From positions 62,001 through 126,000 of the forward strand of contig JAQGHU010000069.1 of assembly GCA_028291515.1 (NCBI GenBank): a stretch of DNA of 64,000 bases, given 5' to 3'. This document shows, in pieces, positions 35,104 to 38,977 of the stretch (position 1 is the first letter of the stretch; the number at the start of each line of letters is the position of its first letter). A model generated the notes under the pieces. It did no database searches and was not told where the DNA came from. It saw only the letters and a list, made by a program, of their open reading frames with translations. The position numbers and the translations under genes are program-made. Source of the DNA: Schlesneria sp. (GTDB lineage Bacteria; Planctomycetota; Planctomycetia; Planctomycetales; Planctomycetaceae).

Positions 35104-35239
35104 CCGCGCAATTCTCAGATGGAGAATGCAGATTCTGTATTGAAGCCAGACTTCTGGCGGTTTAGCCTAGCGACGATGTCGCGCGGCTAAGCACTGCGCA
35201 GAAAGTCCATTTATACAGAAACAATTCTGTCTAATTACA

Positions 35240-35246
35240 GTTCGGC
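35240..35246 (+). other. Left-end GTTCGGC core site of the cassette array
   Basis: Exact copy of the 3' terminal heptamer of the 108-bp repeats, 12 bp before the first cassette ORF start. No full attC is visible upstream, so it could be an attI-type site or the remnant of a lost repeat. Confidence 0.5.
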
Positions 35247-35257
35247 GGACATAGATT

Positions 35258-35629
35258 ATGGCTAACTTTAGAGCAGAACGCCTCTTCATCCGTATCGCTG
35301 GCGAGTTAGACTTCGATCCCAACGAAGGGATCAACGCGGAAGAGTTTGCTTTCGCGATGGTTTGTGATGGCGGTGCTTACGATCGCCCCTCTTTGCAAGA
35401 CTACACGTTCGCGCCTTATGACTCTCCGCGGTGGTTTCGAGCATCGAAAGGACTGGCCACAATTCGAGCGGTGATCGCCGAAGAAGAGGCCAAGCTCACG
35501 TCTGCCACTCCAGAACAGAGAACTCACATTGAAAACAAGATTGAGGTCCTCCGAGTGGTTGAGGACAAGCTCGATTCCATAGATCTCAAAGATTACAAGT
35601 TCCATTTTCTGGCTCGCGACCTCGGATAG
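35258..35629 (+). CDS. Cassette ORF 0, hypothetical
   Basis: 123 residues, acidic, soluble, no signal peptide (start MANFRAERLFIRIAGELDF). A long helix with EEEAKLTSATPEQRTHIENK is likely. No family recognised. Starts 11 bp after GTTCGGC, ends 29 bp before the interrupted repeat whose left part begins at 35659, which is the layout of an integron cassette. Confidence 0.7.
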   Translation: MANFRAERLFIRIAGELDFDPNEGINAEEFAFAMVCDGGAYDRPSLQDYTFAPYDSPRWFRASKGLATIRAVIAEEEAKLTSATPEQRTHIENKIEVLRVVEDKLDSIDLKDYKFHFLARDLG

Positions 35630-35683
35630 GGGATGTCACGGTCCAGAAGGTCAACAAGGCCGAACGAGACGGTCAACTTGACC

Positions 35684-36369
35684 TGAACTGCCCACCAAAC
35701 AAGGATGATTCTGTAACGAAACTAGGACAAAATCAGTAGCGAAAAGCTCGTTTTGTCCTAGTTGTTTGTCCTATTCCGTATGAAAAATACTTCTTGGATT
35801 CACTTCCAATGGGCTTTTACTACCGCCCATCTTTCTGTGTTCGTGCACCCGTGACGAGGCTGGCTCAAAGCTCACGCTCGATTTGTTGAACGGCTGCAAT
35901 CCATTCTGGACGACTGATCTGCAGGCGGGCTTGCTTCTCCCATTTTGCGGGGCTACGACGGCACCATTTATATCCGCCTGCATCAGTCATCCAGAGATAT
36001 TCGTGCCATTTGAGTGCGTCAAATCCGAAGTCCTGCTTAGTAATATCAACAAGAAACGCTCTGCCGGAACGGATGCGGTCAATAAGCCCCTGTTCTGGCA
36101 AAACAGGAACCCATCCGCCGAGCAATTGATGCATGCCGAGTTGTGCTGGGGTCATCCTCATTTTCCGCTCCGTAAACGAACAAACCCCAGCTTCTCGCTG
36201 ATCGCCCCGAGTCATTTCGTCGCCAATTGCCATCCTTCCATGTTGCTGAATCAAGATTGTCCTAGTGCAATTGTCTTTCGTCAATTGTCCTAGCCAAGCC
36301 TTGACGTAAATGTTGAAATGATAGGCAATTGTGTCCGCCGAAGTCGTCTTGGGTGGAATGGCGGGATGA
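35684..36369. mobile_element. 686-bp insertion within an attC-like site
   Basis: Flanked by the 10-bp duplication CAACTTGACC (35674-35683 and 36370-36379). Carries one reversed ORF (35865-36161), a 13-bp perfect inverted repeat AACTAGGACAAAA / TTTTGTCCTAGTT (35720-35732 and 35751-35763) and two direct ATTGTCCTAG copies (36256, 36284). Terminal inverted repeats are not convincing and no transposase is encoded, so it would be a non-autonomous element or a rearranged cassette. Confidence 0.6.
35865..36161 (-). CDS. Hypothetical protein inside the insertion
   Basis: 98 residues from ATG 36161, chosen because GGAG lies 6 nt upstream; the frame is open to 36284. Start MRMTPAQLGMHQLLGGW; end WIAAVQQIEREL. 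Soluble, Trp-rich (WHEYLWMTDAGGYKWCRR). No family recognised. It is the only gene in the array region on the minus strand, and its 3' side faces the AACTAGGACAAAA hairpin, which could terminate it. Confidence 0.6.
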   Translation of the reverse strand: MRMTPAQLGMHQLLGGWVPVLPEQGLIDRIRSGRAFLVDITKQDFGFDALKWHEYLWMTDAGGYKWCRRSPAKWEKQARLQISRPEWIAAVQQIEREL

Positions 36370-36466
36370 CAACTTGACCCGCAGTCGCTGGCGGCTCAAA
36401 GTATTGGCGTGTTGATCGGAAGCCCGTCGTTTATCGCGGGCAAGTTACCTTTGACGTTCGGCGGCA

Positions 36467-36847
36467 ATGTTACAAGTAATTCTGAACGTGCCGCAGTTAT
36501 CACAGATGCAGTTGGCATCGCGTGCCATCGCCCTGATTTCAGTACCGTGGTCACCGTGGCCACAGAAGTCGCGAGAGGTGTTGGTTTCGTTAGAGACCTC
36601 GCAAGAACAATGGTCTCCTCAATGTCCCGTGGAATTCTTCGATGTTTGGCCGGAACGTGACGCGGAACTGAACCGTTGGTATGAGATGCAATGTGTCGAT
36701 GCGGAGCCAAAGTTCGAGTTGCATGGTCACGGTTATGGCCCGCTGTGGTGGCTGGCGAATGGCAAGGTTCTGGAATGCCTTGCCAAGCCGTATGATCTTC
36801 CGCTGAAGGAAATTCAGCGGCGTTCGGCAGCGATCTTCCAACGGTGA
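36467..36847 (+). CDS. Cassette ORF 1, hypothetical
   Basis: 126 residues from ATG 36467, four bases after the preceding GTTCGGC; an in-frame GTG at 36488 is an alternative. The first half is low in features; the second half (FFDVWPERDAELNRWYEMQC, then GYGPLWWLANGKVLECL) looks globular. No family recognised. Ends 36 bp before the next attC-like site. Confidence 0.6.
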   Translation: MLQVILNVPQLSQMQLASRAIALISVPWSPWPQKSREVLVSLETSQEQWSPQCPVEFFDVWPERDAELNRWYEMQCVDAEPKFELHGHGYGPLWWLANGKVLECLAKPYDLPLKEIQRRSAAIFQR

Positions 36848-36883
36848 TTGCAGCCAAACCGTAGAGACCGCGTTAGCATTATG

Positions 36884-36991
36884 GCCGAACGAGGCGGTCA
36901 ACTTGACCCGCAGTCGTTGGCGGTTCAAAGTATTGGCGCGCTGATTGGAAGCCCGTCTTCAATCGCGGGCAAGTTACCTTGAACGTTCGGC
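36884..36991 (+). repeat. attC-like site 2, 108 bp
   Basis: Begins GCCGAAC (R''-like), ends GTTCGGC (R'-like), perfectly complementary. Inside, GGTCAACTTGACCCGC pairs with GCGGGCAAGTTACC, leaving one C and one A unpaired on the same arm, the bulge pattern of attC L''/L' boxes (G and T on the bottom strand). Confidence 0.8.
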
Positions 36992-37009
36992 AGGAAAGAA
37001 AACAGCGAC

Positions 37010-37348
37010 ATGACCGCTGCTGACCTTCATCGTTGGATTGAGTCGTACAACTGGGACGACGGTTTGGCTCCGATGTGGCCCATCGTCGACAGCCCACAGA
37101 CTGAGTACGCTACAGCACTGTTGATCTATTGGCGACTTGACGGCCCATGGTTGACGTCAGAACCTGGGGACGTGAATAGCGAGGCGAAGACACTTCAAGA
37201 CCGACTTCGAAGTCGGCTATTGAGTGGCCAGTACACCGTCGGTTCATGCCATTTCGACCCAACGGAGGAATTATCACAAGTCCAGATAATCAAACTGCGC
37301 AAGGCAGGATTGCCCGAGGTCTTGTTGGGATCGGTTAGTCACCGTTAA
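37010..37348 (+). CDS. Cassette ORF 2, DUF4274-like hypothetical
   Basis: 112 residues; AGGAAAG precedes the ATG. The N-terminal part (LHRWIESYNWDDGLAPMWPI, then TALLIYWRLDGPW) resembles DUF4274, a small domain of unknown function seen in many bacteria; this is recognition by eye. Soluble, no signal. Starts 18 bp after the previous site and ends 35 bp before the next. Confidence 0.65.
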   Translation: MTAADLHRWIESYNWDDGLAPMWPIVDSPQTEYATALLIYWRLDGPWLTSEPGDVNSEAKTLQDRLRSRLLSGQYTVGSCHFDPTEELSQVQIIKLRKAGLPEVLLGSVSHR

Positions 37349-37383
37349 TGTCGCTATTTCAGTGGCGCTCCAGTTAAAACAGA

Positions 37384-37491
37384 GCCGAACCATTCGGTCA
37401 ACTTGACCCGCAGTCGCTGGCGGTTCAAAGTGTTGGCGTGTTGATTGGAAGCCCGTTATTGATCGCGGGCAAGTTACCTTTGGCGTTCGGC
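37384..37491 (+). repeat. attC-like site 3, 108 bp
   Basis: GCCGAACCATTCGGT start, CTTTGGCGTTCGGC end. Internal boxes as in site 2; differs at several positions in the outer spacer, which is expected of independently acquired cassettes. Confidence 0.8.
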
Positions 37492-37507
37492 TGCGGAAGG
37501 TTATTTG

Positions 37508-37759
37508 ATGTCGGATCGCCGAATCATCAACCGGAACTATACTTGCCGATTCTGCGGCACAATCCGACGTGCTCCCGCTGATTACGTGCCGGGTGCGCCG
37601 CCGACACCGAGGTGCTGCGGGCAGCCTATGCAGTTACTATCGTACGAACAGACGGTCGCGGCTACGCAACTCTCGGAAGTCGCTAGGAAGGCTTGGCTTG
37701 ACGCTGGCGGCGATGTCGCGAAACGTGGTGGGAAACACCATTGGAAAGCTGTTTGGTAA
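37508..37759 (+). CDS. Cassette ORF 3, small zinc-ribbon-like protein
   Basis: 83 residues from ATG 37508 (GGAAGG upstream). CRFCGTIRRAP followed about 20 residues later by CCGQPM gives a CxxC...CC arrangement like a rubredoxin/zinc ribbon, then a basic helix-rich C-terminus (GGDVAKRGGKHHWKAVW). Metal binding is inference. No wider family recognised. Confidence 0.65.
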   Translation: MSDRRIINRNYTCRFCGTIRRAPADYVPGAPPTPRCCGQPMQLLSYEQTVAATQLSEVARKAWLDAGGDVAKRGGKHHWKAVW

Positions 37760-37824
37760 TCTCGCCAAGATTTCTATTGAATTAAAAGATCAGCTTGGTG
37801 ACTGGAGTCGGATAGTGAGCAATC

Positions 37825-37932
37825 GCCGAACGAGTCGGTCAACTTGACCCGCAGTCGCTGGTGGTTCACAGTGTTGGCTTGTTGATTGGAAGCTCGTCGT
37901 CAATCGCGGGCAAGATACCTTGGTCGTTCGGC
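37825..37932 (+). repeat. attC-like site 4, 108 bp
   Basis: Same ends and length. It differs from the others in the inner region (GGTTCACAGTGTTGGCTTG, AAGATACC instead of AAGTTACC), so the L'' pairing loses one base pair. Confidence 0.8.
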
Positions 37933-37956
37933 AGAGTTCGCAGTCGTAAGGAAAGC

Positions 37957-38379
37957 ATGACATATCGAACCGTCATCCTTTCCAGTTTCGAGGCGTTTCT
38001 CGCATCCGAGTACCCTGGTGAAGCATATTCGCAAGCCGACTTCGAGCCTCGCAATGAAATGCTCTCCCGCTTTCCATACTCAGTGATGCTGGAACTCTCG
38101 TTCGCAGAACTCGATTATGCCAATCGGTGGTGCTGGCACCAGTTCGGTTCACCTCGTGGTGAATGTTATGATACGCAATCTGACTATCTTACCTGTGACA
38201 TCCAGACGCCTCACTGCCATCCCGGAACATGGGCTTGGGAATGGTTCGTGAAAACTGAGTACAACTTTGGCTTCAACGAATGGTATTTTTCCTCAAGCTC
38301 TCAAATGGAACAATTTCTCGGTTTTGTCCCACTGATAAACTGGGGCGATAAGTACCCGGTGGTCTATCCAGTTTATTAA
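37957..38379 (+). CDS. Cassette ORF 4, hypothetical
   Basis: 140 residues; AAGGAAAG lies just upstream of the ATG. Acidic and aromatic-rich (ELDYANRWCWHQFGSPRGEC; TEYNFGFNEWYFSSSS). No signal peptide or membrane helix. Several scattered Cys/His (CDIQTPHCHPGTW) but no recognised motif. Reads like a cytoplasmic effector or immunity-type protein of unknown role; that is inference. Confidence 0.65.
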   Translation: MTYRTVILSSFEAFLASEYPGEAYSQADFEPRNEMLSRFPYSVMLELSFAELDYANRWCWHQFGSPRGECYDTQSDYLTCDIQTPHCHPGTWAWEWFVKTEYNFGFNEWYFSSSSQMEQFLGFVPLINWGDKYPVVYPVY

Positions 38380-38394
38380 AAACAAACGACAACG

Positions 38395-38502
38395 GCCGAA
38401 CGAGGCGGTCAACTTGACCCGCAGTCGCTGGCGGTTCAAAGTGTTGGCGTGTTGATTGAAAGCCCGGCTTCAGTCGCTGGCAAGTTACCTTGAACGTTCG
38501 GC
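38395..38502 (+). repeat. attC-like site 5, 108 bp
   Basis: Starts 15 bp after the ORF 4 stop. GCCGAACGAGGCGGT start and TTGAACGTTCGGC end; the GCGGG of L' reads GCTGG here, one mismatch. Confidence 0.8.
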
Positions 38503-38508
38503 AGCAGC

Positions 38509-38763
38509 ATGCACCGGCTTGTCCTTCCAACACTTGTTTTTACGTTGGGGCATCTCTTCGTTTGGATGTCGGCCTTTGGCGTCTTCGTGGGACTTTTCTT
38601 GTGGCGCATGGACGTTCCCGGAGCAACGATTTGGGACAACAGTATCGCAACCTGCACGCTGGCAGTCCTATCCTTTCCAGTTGGTCTCGTGGCGTGGTTC
38701 ACAATTCGACCCCATCTACACGCTTTCGACTGGGCAGTTGTTTTGGCTAATAGCGCACTTTGA
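38509..38763 (+). CDS. Cassette ORF 5, small membrane protein
   Basis: 84 residues; three hydrophobic helices (LPTLVFTLGHLFVWMSAFGV, then VFVGLFLWRM; TCTLAVLSFPVGLVAWF; AFDWAVVLANSAL). Starts six bases after GTTCGGC with no obvious ribosome binding site, so translation may depend on upstream transcription. No family recognised. Confidence 0.6.
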   Translation: MHRLVLPTLVFTLGHLFVWMSAFGVFVGLFLWRMDVPGATIWDNSIATCTLAVLSFPVGLVAWFTIRPHLHAFDWAVVLANSAL

Positions 38764-38845
38764 GGATATTGTCTGGCCTCGACGTGGACGTCGTCGAAAT
38801 GCCGAAAAAGCATGGCTTCGCGTTTGCGATCGCATTACCCCAAGG

Positions 38846-38953
38846 GCCGAACAACACGCTCAACTTGACCCGCAGTCGCTGGTGGCTCAAAGTGTTGGAG
38901 TGTTGATTGAAAGCCCGTCATTGATCGCGGGCAAGTTACCTTGAACGTTCGGC
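38846..38953 (+). repeat. attC-like site 6, 108 bp
   Basis: GCCGAACAACACGCT start, TTGAACGTTCGGC end. The last intact copy; the following cassette has only a broken site after it. Confidence 0.8.
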
Positions 38954-38977
38954 GAGCAAAAGACTTGAGATAACTTC

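What the first reader, a model, noticed from the sequence alone, without database searches (positions are those of the whole stretch)
35659..36462. attC-like site split by a 686-bp insertion with a 10-bp target duplication
Left piece ends at CAACTTGACC (35674-35683) and right piece starts with the same CAACTTGACC (36370-36379). Excising 35684-36379 rejoins a site of exactly 108 bp with correct ends and pairing. The insert carries one reversed ORF. An element inserting into an attC would freeze that site and block cassette excision.
Basis: seen in the sequence. Interest (0 to 1): 0.78.

Follow-up and report, generated by a model that had tools for sequence, protein, structure and literature searches.

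The report
Gene-carrying mobile element inside integron attC
In three related planctomycete bacteria a small piece of DNA with matching ends but a different passenger gene each time sits at exactly the same point inside an integron recombination site (attC), so it looks like an undescribed kind of small mobile element that uses integron sites as landing pads.

Summary
An attC (35659-36462) is split by 686 bp (35684-36369) flanked by CAACTTGACC; removing 696 bp leaves a normal 108-bp site. The 10-mer is the attC L'' box, present in every attC of the array, so alone it is weak evidence.

Their ends are homologous to this one (left ~99 bp, right ~120 bp), but the passenger gene differs in all three and lies in either orientation. 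The ends carry TTGTCCTA/TAGGACAA boxes at fixed distances from the duplicated 10-mer and are imperfect subterminal inverted repeats. No further copy was found in 170 family genomes or 398 class genomes, and no copy lies outside attC. None encodes a recombinase.

Best reading: a non-autonomous, gene-carrying element family integrated site-specifically into the attC L'' box by an unidentified recombinase acting in trans. The insertion is well supported. The claim that it 'freezes' the site is untested; a fold prediction keeps the outer attC stem. New variant of a known kind (attC-targeting elements).

The parts
35659..35683 (+). Left piece of the split attC (R''-L'')
   Evidence: Sequence; alignment to left pieces in G011 and G013
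35674..35683 (+). CAACTTGACC, left copy of the duplicated 10-mer (L'' box)
35684..36369 (.). 686-bp inserted element
   Evidence: Single copy in own genome; homologous ends in G011 and G013
35684..35782 (+). Conserved left end
   Evidence: 84% mean column identity in three genomes; model R1 finds only these three in family and class
35720..35763 (+). Hairpin AACTAGGACAAAA...TTTTGTCCTAGTT; inner stem differs in each copy but still pairs
35723..35730 (+). TAGGACAA box, position 40 from left edge
35753..35760 (-). TAGGACAA box, position 70 from left edge
35766..35773 (-). TAGGACAA box, position 83 from left edge
35694..35730 (+). Bipartite motif ACCAA-N23-CTAGGACAA, the subterminal inverted repeat (left)
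35865..36161 (-). Passenger gene, 98 aa, no Pfam or NCBIfam model
   Evidence: Homologues in 13 other genomes of the class, outside such elements where checked
36250..36369 (+). Conserved right end
   Evidence: 79% mean column identity in three genomes
36257..36264 (-). TAGGACAA box, 113 bp from right edge
36285..36292 (-). TAGGACAA box, 85 bp from right edge
36285..36323 (-). Subterminal inverted repeat (right), imperfect here, perfect motif in G011
36256..36284 (-). Possible promoter TTGACG-17-GACAAT for the reversed passenger gene (consensus match only)
36370..36379 (+). CAACTTGACC, right copy of the duplicated 10-mer
36370..36462 (+). Right piece of the split attC (L''-loop-L'-R')
   Evidence: 89% identical to a neighbouring attC
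35258..35629 (+). Cassette gene upstream of the split attC, 123 aa
   Evidence: 88% identical copy on another contig of the genome
36884..38958 (+). Rest of the array: five intact attC; no integrase gene on this contig

Best explanation
The 686-bp insert is one copy of a small family of non-autonomous, gene-carrying mobile elements that integrate site-specifically into the L'' box of integron attC sites. A copy has a left end of about 99 bp and a right end of about 120 bp, with repeated TTGTCCTA/TAGGACAA boxes at fixed distances from the exchange point, and a variable passenger gene between them. Shown: the same ends at the same attC position in three genomes, in different arrays, with different cargo, and a direct repeat of the L'' box each time. 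Inferred: a recombinase supplied in trans binds the boxes and joins the ends to CAACTTGACC. The layout (short core shared by target and both junctions, arm-like boxes on both sides) resembles attL/attR of tyrosine-recombinase elements more than the termini of a DDE transposon. How cargo is exchanged is not known.
For: Homologous ends, same attC position and 10-bp repeat in three separately assembled genomes; different cargo in either orientation; boxes at the same distance from the junctions within 1 bp; five of the window's six TAGGACAA boxes lie in this element, 0.64 expected in the whole window; subterminal inverted repeats (0.15% of column shuffles; 0 of 150 profile shuffles; genus-wide pattern hits only at element ends); all copies in attC; split sites do not cluster on an attC tree and their neighbours differ.
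Against: Only three copies are known, one per genome. No recombinase or autonomous copy was found, no circle or true empty orthologous site was seen, and movement was not observed. The attC tree is weakly resolved. Sequence next to the junctions varies between copies. The right edge is less conserved than the rest.
Confidence: 0.66

Rival explanations
1. One ancestral insertion: a single attC was split long ago, and the composite (split attC plus element) has since been moved among arrays by IntI or homologous recombination while cassette and cargo genes were replaced. The element itself need not be mobile now.
For: All copies sit at the identical attC position and orientation, one per genome, in one genus. 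The occupied site is predicted to keep its outer stem, so IntI might still move it.
Against: The three joined sites are no closer to each other (90%) than to ordinary attC (up to 92-93%) and are united in 0% of bootstrap trees. The upstream cassette gene and the cargo both differ in each copy, which would need repeated replacements on both sides of short ends.
Confidence: 0.2
2. Non-autonomous transposon (MITE-like) of a DDE transposase with 10-bp target duplication and a target preference for the palindromic GGTCAACTTGACC.
For: 10-bp direct repeat; inverted-repeat ends; the target box is palindromic.
Against: No terminal inverted repeats: the terminal bases differ between copies (TGAACT, CCAACC on the left; GATGA, CGAAA, CAGCT on the right), and the inverted motif starts about 10 bp from one edge and about 46 bp from the other. 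A single exact target in three of three is unusual for such elements.
Confidence: 0.1
3. No mobile element: fusion of two cassettes by deletions that removed the end of one attC and the start of the next, or an assembly chimera.
For: CAACTTGACC is present in every attC of the array, so a 10-bp overlap could arise without target duplication.
Against: The same breakpoints with homologous inner ends recur in three separately assembled genomes. Deletions would not give the same two junctions three times, nor boxes at fixed distances from them.
Confidence: 0.03

Closest known systems
IS1111-attC insertion sequences (ISKpn4, ISPst6; DEDD transposase with seekRNA)
   Same: Target attC sites at a fixed position; subterminal rather than terminal inverted repeats with unequal extensions; a non-coding region next to the ends
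   Different: Those encode a DEDD transposase, have near-perfect 11-13 bp repeats 7 and 3 bp from the ends and no target duplication (PMC11187229). Here there is no transposase, the repeats are imperfect and about 10 and 46 bp from the edges, a 10-mer is repeated and the cargo varies
Group IIC-attC introns
   Same: Insert in attC sites and CALIN arrays (PMC7923331)
   Different: No ribozyme or reverse transcriptase here; no Rfam match; variable cargo
Tyrosine-recombinase integrative elements (lambda-type attL/attR)
   Same: Short core shared by target and both junctions; arm-like boxes on both sides at fixed distances (comparison from general knowledge)
   Different: No integrase gene in any copy; insertion and excision not shown; elements only 497-882 bp
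MITEs associated with integrons (e.g. 439-bp MITE in Acinetobacter johnsonii)
   Same: Small, no transposase, linked to integrons
   Different: By its abstract that MITE truncates the integron at both ends (PMC3934969); here the element lies inside an attC, lacks terminal inverted repeats and carries a different gene in each copy

Membership tests
IS1111-attC group | DEDD transposase gene | tested here: not met
   Only a 98-aa passenger gene without Pfam or NCBIfam match; cargo of other copies DUF4265 and an unassigned 89-aa protein
IS1111-attC group | Near-perfect subterminal inverted repeats 7 and 3 bp from the ends | tested here: not met
   Imperfect repeats about 10 and 46 bp from the edges
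IS1111-attC group | Fixed target position in attC | tested here: met
   Three of three copies in the L'' box
Group IIC-attC intron | Group II ribozyme | tested here: not met
   No Rfam match at E up to 1 in 35200-37000
DDE transposon or MITE | Terminal inverted repeats | tested here: not met
   Terminal bases differ and do not pair
DDE transposon or MITE | Target duplication of fixed length | tested here: met
   10-mer repeated in all three copies; could also be a shared recombination core
Tyrosine-recombinase integrative element | Core identical in target, left and right junction | tested here: met
   CAACTTGACC at both junctions and in intact attC
Tyrosine-recombinase integrative element | Arm-type binding sites on both sides of the core | tested here: inconclusive
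   Boxes at fixed distances; binding not testable here
Tyrosine-recombinase integrative element | Integrase gene in the element | tested here: not met
   No copy encodes one
Integron gene-cassette array (host site) | Tandem attC of one type, mostly with one small ORF each | tested here: met
   Split attC plus five intact attC at 35659-38958

The most novel reading that the evidence does not exclude
An undescribed family of gene-bearing mobile units that use the integron attC L'' box as their dedicated landing site and exchange the passenger gene between fixed ends: a second, independent cassette system nested inside integrons, moved by a recombinase not yet known.
Probability: 0.4. Interest if true: 0.75.

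Novelty: new variant of a known kind. Interest (0 to 1): 0.55.

Why it matters
Elements that land in attC are known from only a few families, which carry their own transposase or ribozyme. A transposase-free unit with constant ends, an exact attC target and a different gene in each copy would be another route by which genes enter integron arrays, and it would change how split or 'degenerate' attC sites are read. It also offers a natural test of whether an attC with a very long loop is dead or still recombines.

Tried and rejected
Right end as a decayed attC: single pairwise alignments looked suggestive, but a profile of attC gave no score; rejected. Known RNA or intron: no Rfam match. Copies in phages, plasmids or viral contigs: none; the one IMG/VR pattern hit (L050) is an unrelated phage intergenic repeat. 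Of six GTDB pattern hits, two are G011 and G013; the other four (Ligilactobacillus, Enterococcus, a Clostridia MAG, Metamycoplasma) are expected chance or terminator-like hits and were not examined. Two G013 loci matched only a leader or terminator-like sequence shared with the cargo's 5' region. IS91-like and tyrosine-recombinase genes near the G011 copy were considered as drivers, but nothing ties them to the element. The cargo search in named genomes found nothing; the class search did. The empty-site search with joined flanks found only the own locus, a decayed copy of the upstream cassette and single attC elsewhere. The pattern and model searches are limited to held genomes; metagenomes could not be searched.

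Full report
What was checked. The split site is as described: GCCGAACGAGACGGTCAACTTGACC at 35659-35683, a 686-bp insert, then CAACTTGACC at 36370-36379 and the rest of an attC up to 36462. Removing 696 bp leaves 108 bp, the usual length here (17 of 19 well-formed sites). The 10-mer occurs seven times in the window, once in each of five intact attC and at both edges of the insert. It is the attC L'' box, so on its own the repeat would have been weak evidence.

What settles the insertion. A search of 59 related genomes with the insert gave partial matches in two genomes of the same genus; apart from two short matches to a leader-like stretch of the cargo, they covered only its ends. One contig is titled uncultured Schlesneria sp. 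Umea1_bin-0540 (G013), the other Planctomycetota bacterium SZAS-6 (G011). Both hold an attC split at the same point. The inserts are 882 bp (G011) and 497 bp (G013); excision leaves 104 bp (measured to ...CGTTCG) and 108 bp. The left 99 bp and right 120 bp align across the three copies with 84% and 79% mean column identity. The passenger gene differs in each: here a 98-aa protein of a planctomycete family without a Pfam model, reversed; in G011 a DUF4265 protein, reversed; in G013 an 89-aa protein, forward.

Architecture of the ends. TAGGACAA/TTGTCCTA boxes stand at positions 39-40, 69-70 and 82-83 from the left edge, and 113-114 and 85-86 from the right edge, in all copies; some boxes have one or two mismatches in G011 or G013. 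The window holds six such 8-mers against 0.64 expected, five of them in this element. The first two left boxes form a hairpin whose inner stem has changed sequence in each copy but still pairs. The two ends are imperfect inverted repeats: the summed alignment score of left end against reverse-complemented right end is reached by 0.15% of column shuffles, and the profile score by 0 of 150. The pattern ACCAA-N22..26-CTAGGACAA is found three times in the 15 genomes of the genus, always at an end of one of these elements, and in inverted orientation at the two ends in G011; the reversed control pattern gave scattered chance hits. On the reverse strand the right end holds TTGACG-17-GACAAT, a possible promoter for the cargo, in the two copies whose cargo is reversed and not in the third. 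This is a consensus match only.

Distribution. The hairpin pattern and a covariance model of the left end find three copies only, in 170 genomes of the family and 398 drawn from the class. Scans of the genus for other attC broken at the L'' box gave no further copy. There is one copy per carrier genome and none outside attC. The insert was not found in phage or plasmid records, nor the attC-left-end junction in IMG/VR. In a tree of 79 sites the three joined sites are never united (0% of bootstrap trees). The tree is weakly resolved, but with the different neighbours it favours independent insertions.

Mechanism. The layout (short core shared by target and both junctions, boxes at set distances on both sides, variable contents, no enzyme) fits best with site-specific integration by an unidentified recombinase acting in trans. 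A transposon with 10-bp staggered cuts is the main alternative on mechanism, but terminal inverted repeats are missing. Movement, excision and cargo exchange are inferred, not shown. I put about two in three on the general claim of a non-autonomous, attC-specific, gene-carrying element, and less on the type of enzyme.

Does it freeze the attC? Not shown. The bottom strand of the whole 804-bp site is predicted to keep the outer stem (about 10.9 expected pairs between the outer 30-nt arms, against 8.9 for the joined site), because the left piece keeps R'' and L''. The loop would be several hundred bases, far beyond a normal attC, so reduced function is likely but untested.

Comparison with known kinds. 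IS1111-attC elements also land in attC and have subterminal repeats, but they carry a DEDD transposase and do not duplicate the target; that paper warns that apparent duplications can be misassigned ends (PMC11187229), a caution that applies here too, since one 10-mer may belong to the element. Group IIC introns also use attC (PMC7923331), but no ribozyme is present. In the open literature searched I found no description of a transposase-free, cargo-varying element at the attC L'' box; that library is partial. I therefore rate it a new variant of a known kind.

Noticed in passing
L037 (G011:C55), minus strand 3622-3586: A second broken attC in G011: the site stops after CGCAGTCGC and runs into an IS91-like (Y2_Tnp) transposase fragment; IS91-like and tyrosine-recombinase genes flank the array.
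   Followed up: partly
L144 (G000:C59) 1467-1841: An 88% identical, apparently frameshifted copy of the cassette gene upstream of the split attC, on another contig, with an attC half before it and only a decayed attC remnant after it and no insert.
   Followed up: partly
G000:C32:27754-28422: The only over-cut-off integron integrase match in this genome covers positions 9-231 of 315, next to another attC array; it may be truncated or frameshifted.
   Followed up: no
L063 (G011:C49:2589-2602 and flanks): An attC-like fragment ends in a near-perfect palindrome GCCGTACACTGCGGTCAACTTGACCGCAGTGTACGGC centred on the L'' box.
   Followed up: no
36158-36205: The 5' region of the passenger gene shares GAAGCTGGGGTTTGTTCGTTTAC with a terminator-like leader found before two unrelated genes in G013.
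   Followed up: partly
37010-37348: A neighbouring cassette encodes a DUF4274 protein.
   Followed up: no
L050 6880-7130: A phage intergenic region packed with TTGTCCTA-type repeats; judged unrelated to the element.
   Followed up: partly
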